A stretch of DNA of 64,000 bases from Dyadobacter beijingensis DSM 21582 (GTDB lineage: Bacteria > Bacteroidota > Bacteroidia > Cytophagales > Spirosomataceae), in NCBI RefSeq assembly GCF_000382205.1, contig NZ_KB907786.1, positions 310,001-374,000 on the forward strand, written 5' to 3'. Within the stretch, counting starts at the first letter, position 1. The number at the start of each line of letters is the position of its first letter. Under the pieces are notes generated by a model that searched no databases, had not been told where the DNA came from, and saw only the letters and a list, made by a program, of their open reading frames with translations. The translations under genes and the position numbers were made by a program. Below are positions 18,671 through 25,674 of this stretch, one piece after another.

Positions 18671-19813
18671 ATGAAGAAGCTCTTCTATCTCGGAATCATC
18701 GGCATTATCCTTTACGAAATCGCGAAAGTATACTTTATTATGCCTATGCCCGGCAGCCAGCGGATGAACAGCATCGATGCCGCCTATTTCCTGCATACCT
18801 GGCGCTGGCCGCTGCGGATGTTGTTCTGGGTAATGGTCGTCGGCGGGGCATTTTCCGTGTTTTCGGGTAAAATGAAATGGCTGCCGGCTATTTTTCTGCT
18901 TTTGGCCGCCGGGATTACCTATGCTACCAACTACGAAATGGCGGCAGATACGATGTTTTACCAGCCCTCTCAGGTGGTCCATCATAATGCGGCTGCCAAT
19001 AAGGTGGATATGGACCGCCTTGTGATCGGCGTGGAGGCGAACGGCGAGGCCAAAGCGTACCCGATTCAGTACATTGGTTACCATCACCAGGTCCGCGATG
19101 TACTCGGCGGCAAACCCATTATGGTTACCTACTGCACCGTTTGCCGCACCGGCCGGGTTTTTGAGCCGGTGGTGGATGGCAAGCCGGAGGTGTTCAGGCT
19201 TGTGGGAATGGACCATTTCAATGCAATGTTCGAAGACGGCGAAACGGGAAGCTGGTGGCGGCAGGCCAATGGCGAGGCGATTGCCGGTCCGTTGAAAGGC
19301 AAAATGCTCCCCGAGCTCGCCAGTACGCAAACGTCATTGAGCCAATGGCTGAAATTGCACCCTAACAGCAAAATCATGCAGCCCGACCCGGTATACCAGG
19401 CCAAATACGATTCCATGAGCCGTTACGAATCGGGCAGGGGCAAGTCGGCGCTTACCCGCACGGATACCTTGTCGTGGAAGGATAAATCGTGGGTAGTGGG
19501 TATTCAGTCCGGCAGCGCCGCGAAGGCATTCGACTGGAACCGGCTCAAAAAAGAGCGCATCATCAACGCGCAGGTCGGTGCTACACCCGTTGCATTGGCC
19601 ATCAGCGCCGACAACAACAGCTTCTTCGCATTCGACAAAGGTGCCGACCAGCCGTTTACCATTAAAAACGACACCATTTTCACACCCAACGGTGCCTATG
19701 ACCTGCTCGGCAAACGCCTTACCGGCGCGGGCAGTGACCTGAAACGCATCAATGCCTACCAGGAATTCTGGCATAGCTGGCGCACATTCCACCCGGGTAC
19801 CGGGCAGTACTGA
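18671..19813 (+). CDS. DUF3179 domain-containing membrane protein
   Basis: This 380-residue protein has three or four hydrophobic segments in the first 100 residues (LGIIGIILYEIAKVYFI; MLFWVMVVGGAFSVFS; AIFLLLAAGITYA). The DUF3179 region then begins near VDMDRLVIGVEANGEAKAYP. A cysteine pair, YCTVCRTG, is the hallmark of this domain and could bind a metal or cofactor. The domain function is not established. It is separated from the upstream operon by a terminator, so it is likely transcribed alone. Confidence 0.85.
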   Translation: MKKLFYLGIIGIILYEIAKVYFIMPMPGSQRMNSIDAAYFLHTWRWPLRMLFWVMVVGGAFSVFSGKMKWLPAIFLLLAAGITYATNYEMAADTMFYQPSQVVHHNAAANKVDMDRLVIGVEANGEAKAYPIQYIGYHHQVRDVLGGKPIMVTYCTVCRTGRVFEPVVDGKPEVFRLVGMDHFNAMFEDGETGSWWRQANGEAIAGPLKGKMLPELASTQTSLSQWLKLHPNSKIMQPDPVYQAKYDSMSRYESGRGKSALTRTDTLSWKDKSWVVGIQSGSAAKAFDWNRLKKERIINAQVGATPVALAISADNNSFFAFDKGADQPFTIKNDTIFTPNGAYDLLGKRLTGAGSDLKRINAYQEFWHSWRTFHPGTGQY

Positions 19814-19815
19814 CG

Positions 19816-19847
19816 GCGTGAACGCAGACGTTCGCGCAATTATTTTA
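19816..19847 (+). terminator. Weak terminator hairpin between convergent genes
   Basis: GCGTGAACG at 19816-19824 pairs with CGTTCGCGC at 19829-19837 around the loop CAGA (one G-T pair) and is followed by AATTATTTTA. It starts immediately after the DUF3179 stop and runs into the end of the opposing gene. The tail is only moderately T-rich, so efficiency is doubtful. Confidence 0.4.
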
Positions 19848-21540
19848 CTAAAAACCTTAACGAAAGCTGCATATTAGGCGACCTGACACTCCTGAACCCG
19901 CTATTCGACAGGCTCGATACGGGAACAATCACCGTCCACCCCACCTGAACCCGGTTATCCAGCAGCTGCGGCAAATGTAACAGCACACCCGCACGGAGGT
20001 TCCATTGCTGAGGACGAATGTAAGTTTTCAGCGACTCCTGCCCTTTCACCTCCAGATGCGACTCGTCGACGACGGTCCCGGTGGAATAGGAGGTCTCTCG
20101 GCGAAGCAATGCGGACGAGTACCGGGCGTAGGAAACGCCGCCGACGAGCGACACCCAGCGCAGGGCCTGGTACTGGTATTGCAGAGAGAAATTCAATCCG
20201 AATGATTTGATAAAATTGGTATTGTGGGTAATCGTGTGAAAAAGCGAATCCGTAACACGTACCGTATCCACGCGCTGCGCGACCTGCTCTTTTTTGCCGA
20301 AATACGAATGCAGCGGATTGAGAATCAATGTTACCGAATGCCGGTTCCAGCTTTGGGACACAAACAGGCCGGGTATCGCTATCCGCCACGGATGCTTCAC
20401 GCTGTCGGCGCCGGCAAAGAGGTAGTCCGTAGAGGCAAATCCCCGCGTGAGGTTCCATTCCGGCCCGAAATGCAGGCTGCTCAATACGGGCCGGCGCGCT
20501 TTCGGCAGCGGCTTCGCCACGGGTATGGCAGGTTTCTGAATGTATGGACCAAAATCTTTGACCGCACTGCTGAAATGTCCCGGAAGCGGGCTCAGGCTGC
20601 TGAGGGATATGGATTTTGCTGCCGTTGCCGGCGTGTTTTCCTGGCTAAATGATGCATTTCGTGCCGCTGGCAGCGTGCTGGGATCGACGGGGTTTTGATC
20701 GGGTGAATTGGCTCGGCCGCCCGGATTGATCTTGCCCTCCGCATTACGCCCGTTACCAAGGTTGTTTCGGCTGCCGGGCGTGTTTTCGCTGCCCGGGTTA
20801 CGAGGGACTACCGGAGGGTTTTGACTGTTATCATGGTCGGTAATGCGCTCGTTGACGGTACTGCGCGAGTTTTCAATGCTGCCGGAATTTGCCGGCGTCG
20901 GCTGGACATTCGTTGCGCGCCTGCGTGCAGGTACATAGGTGTCTCGTGCAGGCGTAGCGCGGGCGAGCGCACTGGCGCTACGCGGGTTCGTGCGATGATT
21001 TTCAGCCCGGCCGGTATTAGTCAAGCGGCTGTCGGCTGCCTGTTGATGGTTAGCATTGTTTTTAGCTGATTGATGGTCAGGGGTATGTGGGTTTGTGTTT
21101 TCATTTGAGGAATTACCTGCATCAGAAATATCCTGTACCTTGGAATCCCCCGCAAGCGAATGCGCATTGGCTGAATCCCCATTCATCAAATTTTCCTCCA
21201 CAAAACTTTCCCCGACAGAATCTTTCGCAGTCGCCAGAGCCGATTGCTTTTGGACAGCCTTCCCAACCGGCGCTTCCTGCCGGACGAGGATCAATGCAAT
21301 CATCACCGACGTAACAACAGCGGAAGCGGCGATCAGGAAACCTTTGAATTGGGCAATTATTTTCAGCGCCTGTGTCAATTGGCCGGGATTGGGTGCTGGT
21401 TGGCCCGGATCAGGTACCGCCTGGCCTGCTGCCGCGCCCAGCATATCGTTCATCTCCGCCCAGGCGTCGTCCGCCGGCACTTCCGGGTCGGGCAGCGGGG
21501 CTTGGAGATATTTGTTGATATGTTTGCCTTTCCTGTTCAT
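19840..21540 (-). CDS. Predicted dual-membrane-spanning anti-sigma factor with C-terminal outer-membrane barrel
   Basis: The 566-residue protein has four visible parts. Residues 1-65 are hydrophilic and lie before a hydrophobic helix, so they should be cytoplasmic. Residues 68-90 (FKGFLIAASAVVTSVMIALILV) form one membrane helix. Residues 95 to about 330 are low-complexity, rich in Asn, Ser, Thr, Pro and Ala, like a disordered periplasmic linker. Residues 350-566 alternate as in an outer-membrane barrel (PEWNLTRGF, LNFSLQYQYQ, VSLVGGVSYARY) and end in LSLRFLVK. The start overlaps the stop of an ECF sigma gene as ATGA, the usual layout of sigma/anti-sigma pairs. This matches the architecture of the Dma proteins described in Bacteroides thetaiotaomicron. 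Function is inferred from architecture and context. Confidence 0.75.
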   Translation of the reverse strand: MNRKGKHINKYLQAPLPDPEVPADDAWAEMNDMLGAAAGQAVPDPGQPAPNPGQLTQALKIIAQFKGFLIAASAVVTSVMIALILVRQEAPVGKAVQKQSALATAKDSVGESFVEENLMNGDSANAHSLAGDSKVQDISDAGNSSNENTNPHTPDHQSAKNNANHQQAADSRLTNTGRAENHRTNPRSASALARATPARDTYVPARRRATNVQPTPANSGSIENSRSTVNERITDHDNSQNPPVVPRNPGSENTPGSRNNLGNGRNAEGKINPGGRANSPDQNPVDPSTLPAARNASFSQENTPATAAKSISLSSLSPLPGHFSSAVKDFGPYIQKPAIPVAKPLPKARRPVLSSLHFGPEWNLTRGFASTDYLFAGADSVKHPWRIAIPGLFVSQSWNRHSVTLILNPLHSYFGKKEQVAQRVDTVRVTDSLFHTITHNTNFIKSFGLNFSLQYQYQALRWVSLVGGVSYARYSSALLRRETSYSTGTVVDESHLEVKGQESLKTYIRPQQWNLRAGVLLHLPQLLDNRVQVGWTVIVPVSSLSNSGFRSVRSPNMQLSLRFLVK

Positions 21541-22073
21541 CAGAGGGATTTTTCAAAAATGATTCTCAGCCGGTTGCGGCTTTCACTCAAATGCCATTTC
21601 ACGGTGCCTTCGCTGATCGTCAGCGCGTCCGCGATTTCCTTTACCGAGAACCCGTCCATATAATACAAGCTGCAAATGCGGCGTGTGGCAATGGGCAGCT
21701 GCATGAGGTACACGTGAATGTCGGTCCCTGAAAGCTGTTCGAAGGGGTTTTCCTGTGAAACGAAGCCCATTTTGTCCTCGATTCCCACGTAATCGAATGC
21801 CTGCGTCTTGCGGTCGCGGAGCATGGTGAGCGCCGCGTTGCGGACGGTGGTGTACATCCAGTTGAAGAACTCGCCCTTGGACGCGTCGTACTGCCCGATG
21901 TTGGCGAACACTTTGAGCATCCCGTTGTTGACCGCCGTGACGATATCGTGCTTGTCGTCGAAGAAATTTTTGCAAAGCGCGAACAGGACAGGGTAAAATT
22001 GCCGGTACAATTTTTCCTGACTCTGGCGTTCCTGACGCCTGCAACCCGCCAATATATCCGTTAATGGATTCAA
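21540..22073 (-). CDS. ECF-type RNA polymerase sigma factor
   Basis: This is a sigma-70 family protein of about 177 residues. Region 2 is visible in YRQFYPVLFALCKNFF and GEFFNWMYTTVRNAA, and region 4 in SLYYMDGFSVKEIADALTISEGTVKWHL. There is no region 3, as expected for the ECF group. The start is uncertain: the frame is open to a GTG at 22115, but those codons lie in a strong hairpin, and homologous-looking sequence begins at NPLTDILAGCRR, so the TTG at 22073 is proposed. The last base of the start codon region of the downstream anti-sigma gene overlaps this stop, so both are coupled. It should direct transcription in response to the partner protein. Confidence 0.85.
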   Translation of the reverse strand: MNPLTDILAGCRRQERQSQEKLYRQFYPVLFALCKNFFDDKHDIVTAVNNGMLKVFANIGQYDASKGEFFNWMYTTVRNAALTMLRDRKTQAFDYVGIEDKMGFVSQENPFEQLSGTDIHVYLMQLPIATRRICSLYYMDGFSVKEIADALTISEGTVKWHLSESRNRLRIIFEKSL

Positions 22074-22090
22074 ATAGTACGCATAAGAAG

Positions 22091-22114
22091 TGTGGCCGGC
22101 CAGCCCCGGCCACA
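22091..22114 (-). terminator. Hairpin between lipoprotein and sigma genes
   Basis: A perfect 9-base GC-rich stem (TGTGGCCGG / CCGGCCACA, loop CCAGCC) lies 20 bases after the lipoprotein stop. On the minus strand it is followed by the weakly T-rich CTTCTTAT. It may attenuate read-through into the sigma gene or stabilise the upstream message. It also argues against translation starting at the GTG at 22115. Confidence 0.4.
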
Positions 22115-22133
22115 CGGATTTTACACTAAACGC

Positions 22134-22973
22134 TTACAACTCTTTTTTGGTAAACACCACGCCGGTTTGATAAGGCCATTCGAATGTGTAGCCGGATTTT
22201 CCTTTTCGTGTCATCGTGCCTGTATAGACCTGGTCGTTGAAATGGATTTCCACCGTGCCGCTGAAATCAGCCGGAATGTTGTAAATCGACTGAAAGCCGG
22301 TACCAGGCGATTTTTCAGGCGAGTAACATCGAGCCCCCGTCAGCGTTTTGCCGATTTTGATCTGATACGAATTCCCGATTTTGCTCCACACGGCCGAAAG
22401 ATAGTTTTGCGAACACGGATAGCTTTGGACGGTGGCAAATTTGAGGCCGATCATGTTTTCGACCGTATCCCCGAATGCTACGGGCGCCACATTCAAAACG
22501 TCGTTGGCCGCGAGCGGTTTCTCGGATGCGGGCAGCTGATACACCTGGTCGCTCACCTGTACGTCGATGAATGTCGTGTCATTACTCAGGCTGTCGATCG
22601 CCAAAACGCGGTATTTGCCGGCTTTTTGGAAATAGATAGTGGTTTTGATGCCCTTGTTGTGAGTTACTTCCTGCGGTAATACCCGCCATTTTACGAATGG
22701 GCTTTTGCCGTTGATCAATGTAAAAACTGCGGGGAATTTTTGCTCGATACCGGTCGTTTTTTCCGTGTAAATACGTCTTGTCAGGGAATCGGGCACGGCG
22801 GTGCTGTCAGTACCGGTGCTGTCGGTATGCGTGCTGTCCGCCCCCAGCGAGTCCACCCCCGTCCGCGCCGAAACCGGTGCTGGCGCATTTTCTTCCATTT
22901 TACTCCGCTCGCAGGCAACCATTTGGATCAGTATCAGCACAATGCCCCATACCAGCCATTTTTCTTTTCTCAT
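22134..22973 (-). CDS. Hypothetical lipoprotein with Ser/Thr/Asp-rich linker
   Basis: The proposed 279-residue form starts MRKEKWLVWGIVLI and has a lipobox MVAC, so it should be lipid-anchored. Just after the anchor is a flexible linker rich in Asp, Ser and Thr (GADSTHTDSTGTDSTAV). The C-terminal 200 residues appear all-beta, with two cysteines (SYPCSQN and GARCYSP) that could form a disulfide. The open frame extends upstream to 23120, but the ATG at 22973 (or 22982) directly precedes the signal. No family is recognised. It lies upstream of the sigma/anti-sigma pair on the same strand and may be a regulon member or an envelope input to that system. Confidence 0.65.
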   Translation of the reverse strand: MRKEKWLVWGIVLILIQMVACERSKMEENAPAPVSARTGVDSLGADSTHTDSTGTDSTAVPDSLTRRIYTEKTTGIEQKFPAVFTLINGKSPFVKWRVLPQEVTHNKGIKTTIYFQKAGKYRVLAIDSLSNDTTFIDVQVSDQVYQLPASEKPLAANDVLNVAPVAFGDTVENMIGLKFATVQSYPCSQNYLSAVWSKIGNSYQIKIGKTLTGARCYSPEKSPGTGFQSIYNIPADFSGTVEIHFNDQVYTGTMTRKGKSGYTFEWPYQTGVVFTKKEL

Positions 22974-23118
22974 GACCATCATTTGTTTAAGATTTTGAAA
23001 GATGTAATCAGGAGGCCTCCCTGTCAATAAAATAAACTGCAAGGAATGGCCGGAAGGTTGGGTATAGGGGAAAAAAAATCGTTTTACATTTACAATGAGT
23101 GACCTGACTAACCGCCTC

Positions 23119-24306
23119 ATGAAAAAAATACTTGTCTATTCCCTGATGTTGCTGCTGTCGCAGTCCGTGGCTTTTGCGCAGAATTACGATGAATCCAAAG
23201 TGCCGCGTTACGTGCTGCCCGACGTGCTGAAAACCGCCGGAGGAAAAGTGATCCGCAATGAAGATAAATGGGAGAAACTGCGCCGGCCGGAAGTTTTAAA
23301 ACTTTTTGAAAATAATATCTATGGCCGCATGCCGACGGATTACGATAGCATCCGCTACTCGCTCACGCAGGACGACGTGCCTGAAATGAATGGTAAGGCG
23401 ACGTTGAAGCAGGTGGCGGTGACGGTTTTCCGTAACAGGCAATCGGTGCAGATCAATGTGGTACTTTTTGTTCCTACCCAGGCACGCAAGCCGGTGCCGG
23501 TGTTTTTGCTGATCAACAACCGCGGAAAGGAAAATACCGATCCGACGCGCGTGAAAAAGAGCGAATTCTGGCCCGCCGAAATGGTGATCGACAGCGGTTT
23601 CGCCATTGCCGCATTCCAGGTGAGCGACCTAGCGCCGGACAACAAGGACACTTATGCGAGCGGCGTTTTGCAAAAACTTTATCCCGAACAATTGAAAATG
23701 GACAACGGCATGAAAGCGATCGGCGCCTGGGCGTGGGGCGCGAGCCGGGTGATGGATTATTTTGAAACGGACAGGGATATCGACTCGAAAAAGGTGATCG
23801 TGGTGGGGCATTCGAGAGGAGGTAAAACATCGCTGTGGGCGGCGGCCGAGGACCAGCGTTTCGCGGCATGCATTACCAATTGCTCGGGCAACACGGGGGC
23901 AGCATTGTCCCGCAGGCAGTTTGGCGAGCGGATCAGCCGCATTAACGCCACGTTTCCGCATTGGTTTAACAATACTTATAAAAAATACAACGACAAGGAA
24001 AATGCGCTGCCGGTGGATCAGCACATGCTCATCGCGCTCATCGCACCCCGGCCCGTATACGCAACCAATGCCTCGAAAGACCTCTGGGCTGATCCCAAGG
24101 GAACATTCCTGGCGATGAAGGCGGCCGAACCCGTGTATGCATTATATGGTGTCAGGCCCGAATTGCCTTCGGCGCAGCCGGGTATTAATATGCCGAGCAT
24201 AGGCGCGCATTTCGGCTATCATAACCGCGAGGGCGAGCATAATATGACGGTTTACGATTGGGGCAATTTCGTCCGGTTCGCGAAGAAATTCACTTCGGAC
24301 AAGTAG
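23119..24306 (+). CDS. CE15-like carbohydrate esterase (glucuronoyl esterase family)
   Basis: This 395-residue protein begins with a signal peptide (MKKILVYSLMLLLSQSVAFA) and has an alpha/beta-hydrolase fold. The nucleophile elbow GHSRGGKTSLW corresponds to the GCSRxGK motif of CE15. SGNTGAALSRR and the histidine segment REGEHNMTVYDW are also characteristic. CE15 enzymes cleave esters between lignin alcohols and glucuronoyl groups of xylan; bacterial relatives also act on other esters. The longer frame from 23095 was rejected because the ATG at 23119 gives the ideal signal. It is transcribed away from the sigma locus. Confidence 0.85.
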   Translation: MKKILVYSLMLLLSQSVAFAQNYDESKVPRYVLPDVLKTAGGKVIRNEDKWEKLRRPEVLKLFENNIYGRMPTDYDSIRYSLTQDDVPEMNGKATLKQVAVTVFRNRQSVQINVVLFVPTQARKPVPVFLLINNRGKENTDPTRVKKSEFWPAEMVIDSGFAIAAFQVSDLAPDNKDTYASGVLQKLYPEQLKMDNGMKAIGAWAWGASRVMDYFETDRDIDSKKVIVVGHSRGGKTSLWAAAEDQRFAACITNCSGNTGAALSRRQFGERISRINATFPHWFNNTYKKYNDKENALPVDQHMLIALIAPRPVYATNASKDLWADPKGTFLAMKAAEPVYALYGVRPELPSAQPGINMPSIGAHFGYHNREGEHNMTVYDWGNFVRFAKKFTSDK

Positions 24307-24377
24307 CAGGTACGAAATTTTGACATTTAGAATGAATGGGGCCCGACGCGGGGCGCAAGACTTTAACCGGTACAGCA

Positions 24378-24605
24378 ATGAAAGATAGAAAACTCCCCGA
24401 AGACCAGTCGCTGGTTTTGTTTACGGATATGAACGGTGTGCCCCGGGAGGGGACTTACAAAAAGGCTTCAAAAGCATTTATCGAAGCCATCGGCGACGAG
24501 GGGCCGGAAGATACGGGCAATATTTACCCGGAAGAGGACATTGTATCCTGGGAATACCTCGAAAAGAAGGACCGTCCGAACCCGGACATTATGGTCATCC
24601 TTTAA
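24378..24605 (+). CDS. Small acidic hypothetical protein
   Basis: This 75-residue protein (start ATG at 24378) is rich in Asp and Glu, has no signal or membrane segment and shows no family I recognise. The repeated ED pairs and WEYLEKKDRP look like a folded cytoplasmic protein rather than random sequence. It starts 71 bases after the esterase and its stop overlaps the stop of the convergent gene by 4 bases. Confidence 0.6.
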   Translation: MKDRKLPEDQSLVLFTDMNGVPREGTYKKASKAFIEAIGDEGPEDTGNIYPEEDIVSWEYLEKKDRPNPDIMVIL

Positions 24606-25000
24606 ATAGCGAGCAGCGAGTTTCCTTTCGAAGGCGATAGTGCCGATGGACGTGAAGACTTGCGGACGATCAGCACATTCCGCGGATCGGCCGGGTCGAT
24701 ATCGACGGTGATGACCTTGCCGACGACGAGCTCTCTTTGGGATTCGGGAAAGGAGGCATCGAAATCGAATTCGACTACGACGGGCGTTTCGGACAGGATC
24801 TGTACCTTGAGACGGATGTTTTCGGTATAAAAAACGGAAGGGTTAATGGGCCAGGCTTCGAGGATAATGGCCTCGTACTCCCGGCCGTTTTTCAGTACCC
24901 TTTTCAATTTGCGGCTTTCGCGCATTTGAAACCAGTTCCCTCCGCCAACCAGCATAACGGCAGCCAGTACAGGCAAGGCGATGATGTAAAGTGTGAGCAT
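24602..25000 (-). CDS. Hypothetical single-pass membrane protein
   Basis: This 132-residue protein has an N-terminal membrane helix (LTLYIIALPVLAAVMLVGG) followed by a basic linker and a beta-rich domain (YEAIILEAW, RLKVQILSETPVVVEFDF, GKVITVDIDPADP). The layout resembles DUF3592-type proteins, which have a helix plus a small OB-like beta domain, but the match is weak. The ATG at 25000 is preferred over the frame start at 25084, which would place the helix internally. Confidence 0.6.
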   Translation of the reverse strand: MLTLYIIALPVLAAVMLVGGGNWFQMRESRKLKRVLKNGREYEAIILEAWPINPSVFYTENIRLKVQILSETPVVVEFDFDASFPESQRELVVGKVITVDIDPADPRNVLIVRKSSRPSALSPSKGNSLLAI

Positions 25001-25278
25001 AAGTATCTTGCAAATAGTGTAAAGGAGATACGAAAATGCAGGCTTGCAGGTGTAATGCCAAGAAACAGTTAGCGAACGGATCAAATAGGCTTATCAATCG
25101 GCAGGGATTTACCTTTGTCCTTTTACTCCCCACTTTTTTAAACCGGTATTTCAAATAACTCCCTATTTCCATCGGTGAATAGCTGAGTCCTGCCGGTTAC
25201 ACATTACGTGACCGATACGGCATGGCAGCGCACGTTTTTATTGGGTTGGAAGGTAGTACCAACCAAACCAATAGTCCT

Positions 25279-25674
25279 ATGAATACTGCTCAAAAATTAG
25301 CCGCTTTCGCAGCATTGTGCTTCATGCTGGTATTTTCATGCAAGGAGAAGGAATTTGATTCGCCATACATTTCGATCGAATCACCGATGAAAAAGCAGTC
25401 GGTTGCAGGGAGTGACAGCGTGCGGATCAGGGCCACCATTACGCCGTCGGATTCAAGTGTGGCGAATTGGCGCATTATGGTTCAGGATAAGAAGGGAAGC
25501 GATATTTACGCTGCCACCGGTTATTGTGAATGCAAGGGCAAGCAGCCGCTGGACATCGAGAGGGCATTTGCGTATCCGGTGAATAAAACAACGGACATGG
25601 TAATGACCATCTGTGCCAATTTTACGAACGGCACCGAAGCCTGCGAAACAGTGCGTTTCGAAGTCACAAAATGA
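25279..25674 (+). CDS. Hypothetical lipoprotein
   Basis: The 131-residue protein (start ATG 25279) has a signal with lipobox LVFSC at residues 16-20, followed by an acidic sequence and one beta-sandwich-like domain. Two further cysteine-containing segments, GYCECKGKQ and TICANFTNGTEACE, could form disulfides. The pattern ESPMKKQSVAGSDSVRI resembles an Ig-like fold. No known family is recognised. A terminator follows 33 bases after the stop. Confidence 0.65.
   Translation: MNTAQKLAAFAALCFMLVFSCKEKEFDSPYISIESPMKKQSVAGSDSVRIRATITPSDSSVANWRIMVQDKKGSDIYAATGYCECKGKQPLDIERAFAYPVNKTTDMVMTICANFTNGTEACETVRFEVTK

What the first reader, a model, noticed from the sequence alone, without database searches (positions are those of the whole stretch)
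19840..22073. Sigma factor with a partner protein that appears to span both membranes
Seen: an ECF sigma gene overlaps by ATGA a 566-residue gene encoding a cytoplasmic head, one membrane helix, about 235 residues of low-complexity linker and an outer-membrane-barrel-like C-terminus. Known: dual-membrane-spanning anti-sigma factors (Dma) with this architecture are described in Bacteroides thetaiotaomicron, where they affect vesicle formation. Inferred: this is a Cytophagales version that senses the outer membrane directly and signals to RNA polymerase without a proteolytic cascade. The sequences here show no obvious relation I can confirm.
Basis: partly seen in the sequence, partly recalled or inferred. 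Interest (0 to 1): 0.82.

Follow-up and report, generated by a model that had tools for sequence, protein, structure and literature searches.

The report
Dual-membrane anti-sigma circuit in Dyadobacter
A Dyadobacter bacterium carries a protein predicted to reach from its outer membrane to the cell interior and hold back a gene switch, and that switch seems to control little more than its own operon and one lipoprotein: a distinct branch of a signalling design described in gut Bacteroides.

Summary
On the minus strand an ECF sigma gene (21540-22073) overlaps a 566-residue gene (19840-21540) whose product has a conserved head, one membrane helix, a disordered linker and an OmpA-like barrel. The genome is a Dyadobacter; 43 of 48 genus genomes have a match. 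Bacteroides Dma proteins share this architecture and the head is related by profile, but the barrels are not detectably alike and the sigma lies beside, not inside, the Das branch: a divergent Dma-like branch. New here: the pair ends a lipoprotein-sigma-anti-sigma operon behind a strictly conserved ECF-like promoter, CCCAACCY-N14-GYAGTTTAT (window 23032-23062). In 42 of 48 genomes there is exactly one exact copy, always at this locus; the five genomes without the gene have none within one mismatch. In three genomes where the lipoprotein gene is inverted, moved or duplicated, a copy stands before it. Best reading: a self-amplifying envelope sensor whose one conserved output is that lipoprotein. 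Vesicle control is not supported here. Sigma binding, topology, signal and activation step are untested.

The parts
19840..21540 (-). Dma-like anti-sigma gene, 566 aa: head about 1-40, membrane helix 68-86, disordered linker 89-330, barrel 353-566
   Evidence: ORF, conservation by segment in 39 sequences, AlphaFold, fold searches
21421..21540 (-). cytoplasmic head, residues 1-40, with LPDPEVPADDAWAEMNDML
   Evidence: 64% mean majority identity in 39 sequences; W27 invariant; profile match to Bacteroides Dma-like heads
21283..21339 (-). single membrane helix, residues 68-86
   Evidence: hydropathy 2.70; one such helix in 39 of 39 sequences
20551..21276 (-). disordered linker, residues 89-330
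   Evidence: mostly pLDDT below 50; 19% conservation
19843..20484 (-). outer-membrane-type beta barrel, residues 353-566
21540..22073 (-). ECF sigma factor gene, 177 aa, TTG start
   Evidence: Pfam and NCBIfam; 51-87% identity to 20 orthologues
22090..22115 (-). conserved hairpin (10-bp stem, 6-base loop), 16 nt before the sigma start
   Evidence: 29 of 41 loci have a perfect stem with 9 or more Watson-Crick pairs in the 60 nt before the start; 0.4% of mononucleotide shuffles
22134..22973 (-). lipoprotein gene, 279 aa, lipobox MVAC, two predicted beta sandwiches
   Evidence: same-strand homologue upstream of the sigma in 39 of 41 loci by phmmer, the other two recognised by lipobox, one of them inverted; AlphaFold mean pLDDT 84.4
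23032..23062 (-). ECF-like promoter CCCAACCT-N14-GCAGTTTAT
   Evidence: same spacing in 36 of 36 upstream regions examined; only match at up to 3 mismatches in the window; only exact match in the own genome

Best explanation
This is a trans-envelope sigma/anti-sigma circuit. The 566-residue protein is anchored by one helix in the inner membrane and by a small barrel in the outer membrane, joined by a disordered tether across the periplasm (predicted). Its N-terminal head holds the adjacent ECF sigma inactive (inferred from operon layout, head homology to Dma proteins and sigma kinship). A change at the outer membrane, felt by the barrel, lets the sigma go (inferred; whether by pulling, failed barrel insertion or proteolysis is unknown). 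The free sigma then starts transcription at CCCAACCY-N14-GYAGTTTAT (inferred), raising a predicted lipoprotein together with more sigma and anti-sigma. The conserved output is that lipoprotein, so this is a dedicated self-amplifying and self-limiting loop rather than a broad regulon.
For: Head and barrel conserved but not the linker: 64%, 50% and 19%. Barrel fold. Sigma beside the anti-sigma in 38 of 40 loci plus the window, and in G021 and G031. Head homology to Dma-like proteins. Sigma tree: window family, Das-type sigmas and six Dma-like-linked sigmas of the same genome on one side of a supported branch with 39 rows, 97/84. Promoter: -35 box 99% and -10 region 94% conserved, spacer and upstream flank 55% on average. 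One exact site in each of 42 of 48 genus genomes, each checked to lie at the operon or, in G006, before its inverted lipoprotein; none within one mismatch in the five genomes without the anti-sigma. Rearrangements: G006 lipoprotein inverted, a motif before each unit; G021 lipoprotein on another contig with a one-mismatch copy, sigma operon with a two-mismatch copy; G044 second lipoprotein paralogue with a one-mismatch copy. Published precedent: in a B. thetaiotaomicron dma2 deletion das2 and neighbouring bt_1557 rise (log2 4.54 and 6.00); in P. vulgatus a similar pair is induced by an envelope-damaging toxin.
Against: Nothing here shows head-sigma binding, sigma-promoter recognition, membrane placement or a signal. 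The head match is modest: probability 21 against one Dma2-like sequence alone and 30 with the head cut out by itself. AlphaFold confidence in residues 1-90 is only 49-66 in 10-residue means. Of the six own-genome Dma-like partners, two show no helix above my cut-off and only one passes a Pfam barrel cut-off. The other-genus orthologue G050 lacks the motif. Three further one-mismatch sites (G004, G012, G024) have no lipoprotein gene after them. Weaker target sites of a different shape would be missed. Absence of the motif from the five genomes lacking the operon is expected if the operon was lost or never gained whole.
Confidence: 0.68

Rival explanations
1. The pair is a broad envelope-stress or vesiculation regulator like Dma1/Das1 of Bacteroides, with many targets that the motif search misses.
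For: Same architecture and a neighbouring sigma branch; dma deletions in Bacteroides give more vesicles and many expression changes. A sigma may accept degenerate sites.
Against: Own genome at up to 3 mismatches: 13 sites against 26 for the reversed control pattern, only the operon exact. Across 48 genomes at up to one mismatch only five sites lie away from the sigma operon, two of them before lipoprotein homologues, while the reversed control gives 16.
Confidence: 0.2
2. The barrel protein is not an anti-sigma but a partner that the sigma needs, or an outer-membrane protein merely co-transcribed with the sigma.
For: No binding shown; some anti-sigma proteins are known to be needed for sigma activity (recalled).
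Against: Head related to Dma-like heads; in Bacteroides the vesicle effect of losing Dma2 needs Das2, and Dma1 is reported to repress Das1. A membrane helix with a conserved head before it is hard to explain for a plain outer-membrane protein.
Confidence: 0.1
3. The conserved motif belongs to another sigma (housekeeping or a second ECF), and the operon's own sigma acts elsewhere.
For: Recognition was not tested; a conserved TTATTGACA stretch follows the -10 box.
Against: The AAC and GYA elements have ECF-like spacing (recalled consensus); the exact motif is unique per genome and stands before the lipoprotein when that gene is moved. A housekeeping or shared sigma would be expected to have many such sites.
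Confidence: 0.15

Closest known systems
Dma2/Das2 (BT_1558/BT_1559) and Dma1/Das1 of Bacteroides thetaiotaomicron
   Same: Sigma beside anti-sigma; head, one helix, disordered tether, C-terminal barrel (PMC13088901 section 6, read). Related head. Small secreted-protein genes in the operon. Own-promoter logic: GCAGY-N15-CGTCT before the das2-like gene in 10 of 16 loci and with N14 in one more.
   Different: The sigma forms its own long branch beside Das; the barrel matches no Pfam family at E 1 while two Dma-like proteins tested match PF13505; tether 174-270 residues in 39 sequences against 97-161 in 19 Dma-like ones, by my boundaries; lipoprotein gene first in the operon; different promoter sequence; no vesicle link.
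M0N98_03760-61 of Phocaeicola vulgatus, and EcfO with its anti-sigma in B. fragilis
   Same: Large anti-sigma predicted to span the periplasm with an outer-membrane barrel; induced with envelope damage; only 15 genes change in the anti-sigma mutant (PMC9308784 passages).
   Different: Bacteroidales pair whose activation lengthens O-antigen. The EcfO paper was not read, only cited in the papers above.
FecR / TonB-dependent cell-surface signalling
   Same: Carries an outer-membrane event to an ECF sigma (recalled).
   Different: There the barrel is a separate receptor (recalled). FecR is the commonest partner type in this genome (39 of 67 downstream ORFs) but is not found here.

Membership tests
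[quoted passage not shown]
   hhalign, 39 Dyadobacter against 19 Dma-like sequences: E 2e-6, probability 89.5 over head and helix; without the nearest row L091, head plus helix 88.5, head alone 29.6; against one Dma2-like sequence 21.4. Binding itself not tested.
[quoted passage not shown]
   39 of 39 sequences
[quoted passage not shown]
   pLDDT below 50 over most of 89-322; 19% conservation
[quoted passage not shown]
   AlphaFold and fold searches
[quoted passage not shown]
   hhalign probability 18.6 over 45 columns
[quoted passage not shown]
   Outside the branch with Das and the other Dma-like-linked sigmas (90/92, not starred) but within the joint group of 39 (97/84, starred); no ECF21 model was at hand
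[quoted passage not shown] mutant makes more vesicles | not testable with these tools
   needs experiments
FecR-type anti-sigma | FecR and FecR_C domains | tested here: not met
   no Pfam family at E 1

The most novel reading that the evidence does not exclude
A closed homeostatic loop: the barrel reads how much of the lipoprotein reaches or occupies the outer membrane, and the only job of the sigma is to adjust that lipoprotein, so that sensor, tether, switch and output form one self-contained trans-envelope thermostat in Dyadobacter.
Probability: 0.25. Interest if true: 0.78.

Novelty: new variant of a known kind. Interest (0 to 1): 0.62.

Why it matters
How outer-membrane events reach RNA polymerase through a single polypeptide is an open question raised by the Dma proteins, whose effects in Bacteroides are broad. 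Here the predicted direct output is one lipoprotein from one promoter, so signal, release and output could be followed with a single reporter. It also indicates that the design extends beyond Bacteroidales, with a separate sigma branch and promoter sequence, and that one Dyadobacter genome may run several such channels.

Tried and rejected

Distribution beyond the genus: a phylum draw of 395 genomes with the full profile gave 9 with matches, one being the window's own genome; of the other eight, G233 matches over head and helix and has a Dma-like pair, the rest are short or linker-region matches. One of 13 same-family genomes outside the genus (G050) has an orthologue. Sigma profile over 291 genomes of the order: 11 genus members above 300 bits, the next best genome 118 bits.

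Hairpin: no Rfam match at E 1 in 19000-25500. As a plain gene-end terminator of the lipoprotein gene it is doubtful, because two loci where the lipoprotein gene is no longer directly upstream still carry a hairpin there (G021, folded; G006, imperfect, read by eye from the sequence printed), and no clear T-run follows it in most loci as I read them.

Lipoprotein identity: no Pfam match at E 0.01 for a 305-residue version; in the 29-row alignment only weak hits, PKD in 10 of 29 members, best E 9e-4; no PDB sequence relative at E 1. So no NigD match was seen. The FecR motif script undercounts FecR (20, against 39 by Pfam) and is used only for direction.

Literature: searches listed no description of such a pair in Dyadobacter or Cytophagales (listings only, each capped). 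PMC13088901: abstract, section 6, part of the references and passages seen. PMC9308784 and PMC12596196: passages only. The PNAS 2024 Dma1 paper is not held and was known only through citing papers.

Full report
What is there. The window is part of a 7.4 Mb genome (G000) of the same genus as genomes whose contigs match D. endophyticus and Dyadobacter sp. SG02 in length. On its minus strand, reading from high to low coordinates, lie an ECF-like promoter (23032-23062), a lipoprotein gene (22134-22973), a hairpin (22090-22115), an ECF sigma gene (21540-22073, TTG start) and the 566-residue gene of the finding (19840-21540). The sigma stop and the next start overlap as TGATG.

Relation to Dma. The published Dma2 operon layout (PMC13088901) let me find Dma2-like loci through the DUF4943 neighbour, then further Dma-like loci in relatives of one of those genomes. 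I aligned 19 chosen Dma-like sequences. Profile comparison with the 39 Dyadobacter sequences aligns head and helix (E 2e-6, probability 89.5); G233's protein alone gives 93.5, the first Dma2-like protein alone 21.4. With domains cut out and G233 left out, head plus helix gives 88.5, the head alone 29.6, the barrels 18.6, and mismatched domains at most 0.31. E-values are for one comparison.

Sigma kinship. The own genome has 75 sigma region-2 hits. I examined 71 loci, leaving out the window's own and three with long frames. Four had no downstream ORF by my rule; of the 67 others, 39 match FecR. Six look Dma-like by eye (L139, L143, L148, L153, L154, L155): head-like start, linker, beta-rich end. 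A helix passes my cut-off in four of them, not in L148 and L155; only L139 passes a Pfam barrel cut-off (PF13568, 2.5e-8), and L143 is weak (PF13505, 0.02). In a tree of 98 sigmas (one own sigma under 150 aa left out) the window family (9 rows, 100/100), the 19 Das-type rows and the six Dma-like-linked sigmas lie on one side of a branch with 39 rows (97/84), together with five other own sigmas; 47 own sigmas form the other main group and 12 branch outside both. A crude FecR motif is found with 20 of those 47, 0 of the 11 own sigmas inside and 0 of 13 others. The window family sits on a long branch (1.81), so its exact place is unsure.

Reach of the promoter. In the own genome only the operon matches exactly; at up to 3 mismatches there are 13 sites against 26 for the reversed pattern. 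Across 48 genus genomes at up to one mismatch 43 have a site, 42 of them exactly one exact site, and the five without are the five without the anti-sigma gene. Checked loci: 39 of 41 have one same-strand motif within 1.3 kb of the sigma, and G031 and G032 have one too. In G006 the lipoprotein is inverted with an exact copy, and the sigma unit has a one-mismatch copy. In G021 the lipoprotein is on another contig with a one-mismatch copy 93 nt ahead, and the sigma operon has a two-mismatch copy 200 nt ahead. G044 has a second lipoprotein paralogue with a one-mismatch copy 79 nt ahead. Three other one-mismatch sites (G004, G012, G024) have no lipoprotein after them; the reversed pattern gives 16 sites in the same 48 genomes. 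G050, of another genus, has genes but no motif. Co-absence in the five genomes is not independent evidence; the rearrangements are.

How it most likely works. Shown by computation: architecture, conservation, operon, promoter conservation and its presence before displaced lipoprotein genes. Inferred: the head holds the sigma; the barrel sits in the outer membrane and is the sensor; release lets the sigma transcribe this promoter; the lipoprotein is effector or feedback ligand. Bacteroides data make release and self-induction plausible: das2 rises log2 4.54 and bt_1557 6.00 without Dma2, and the vesicle effect of losing Dma2 needs Das2. In P. vulgatus a similar pair is induced by an envelope-damaging toxin. 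Das2-like loci show another upstream pair, GCAGY-N15-CGTCT, in 10 of the 16 loci whose sigma was found (of 30 scanned), with N14 in one more and not in five, so the loop logic may be shared while the promoter is not.

Verdict. The finding is real and its architecture reading right. It is a divergent branch of a known kind, found here in Dyadobacter and one other genus of the family; the added value is the likely one-lipoprotein regulon. Vesicle control has no support here.

Noticed in passing
window 22090-22115, minus strand, and 29 of 41 related loci: Strong hairpin with largely changed stem sequences, mostly 12-17 nt before the sigma start. A hairpin persists in G021 and, imperfectly, in G006, where the lipoprotein gene is no longer directly upstream. 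Terminator, attenuator or translation control is open.
   Followed up: partly
window 22073; 36 of 41 loci: By the length rule of my script the sigma gene starts with TTG in 36 of 41 loci and ATG in five, suggesting that a weak translation start is kept.
   Followed up: partly
L139, L143, L148, L153, L154, L155 (own genome): Six further sigma genes followed by Dma-like proteins (by eye), so one genome may hold seven such channels. L149 and L150, in the same sigma group, have a head-like start but are too short for a barrel.
   Followed up: partly
L033, L034, L036, L038, L039, L040 against window 22134-22973: In several close relatives the matching lipoprotein ORF is only 102-126 aa; in the three inspected (L033, L036, L038) it is a signal plus a D/S/T-rich stretch without the C-terminal domains.
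   Followed up: partly
L253 (G032), L057 (G022), L053 (G050): Broken or split sigma or anti-sigma frames; real decay or assembly errors. Described only.
   Followed up: no
window 22973-23032, minus strand: Just after the -10 box a conserved TTATTGACAGG-like stretch and short inverted repeats of changing sequence lie near the likely transcript start.
   Followed up: no
window 21540-22073, sigma region 2: The stretch that is usually acidic in region 2.2 (recalled) reads INNGMLKVF-like in this family; N49, N50, G51 and M52 are invariant in 21 sequences.
   Followed up: no
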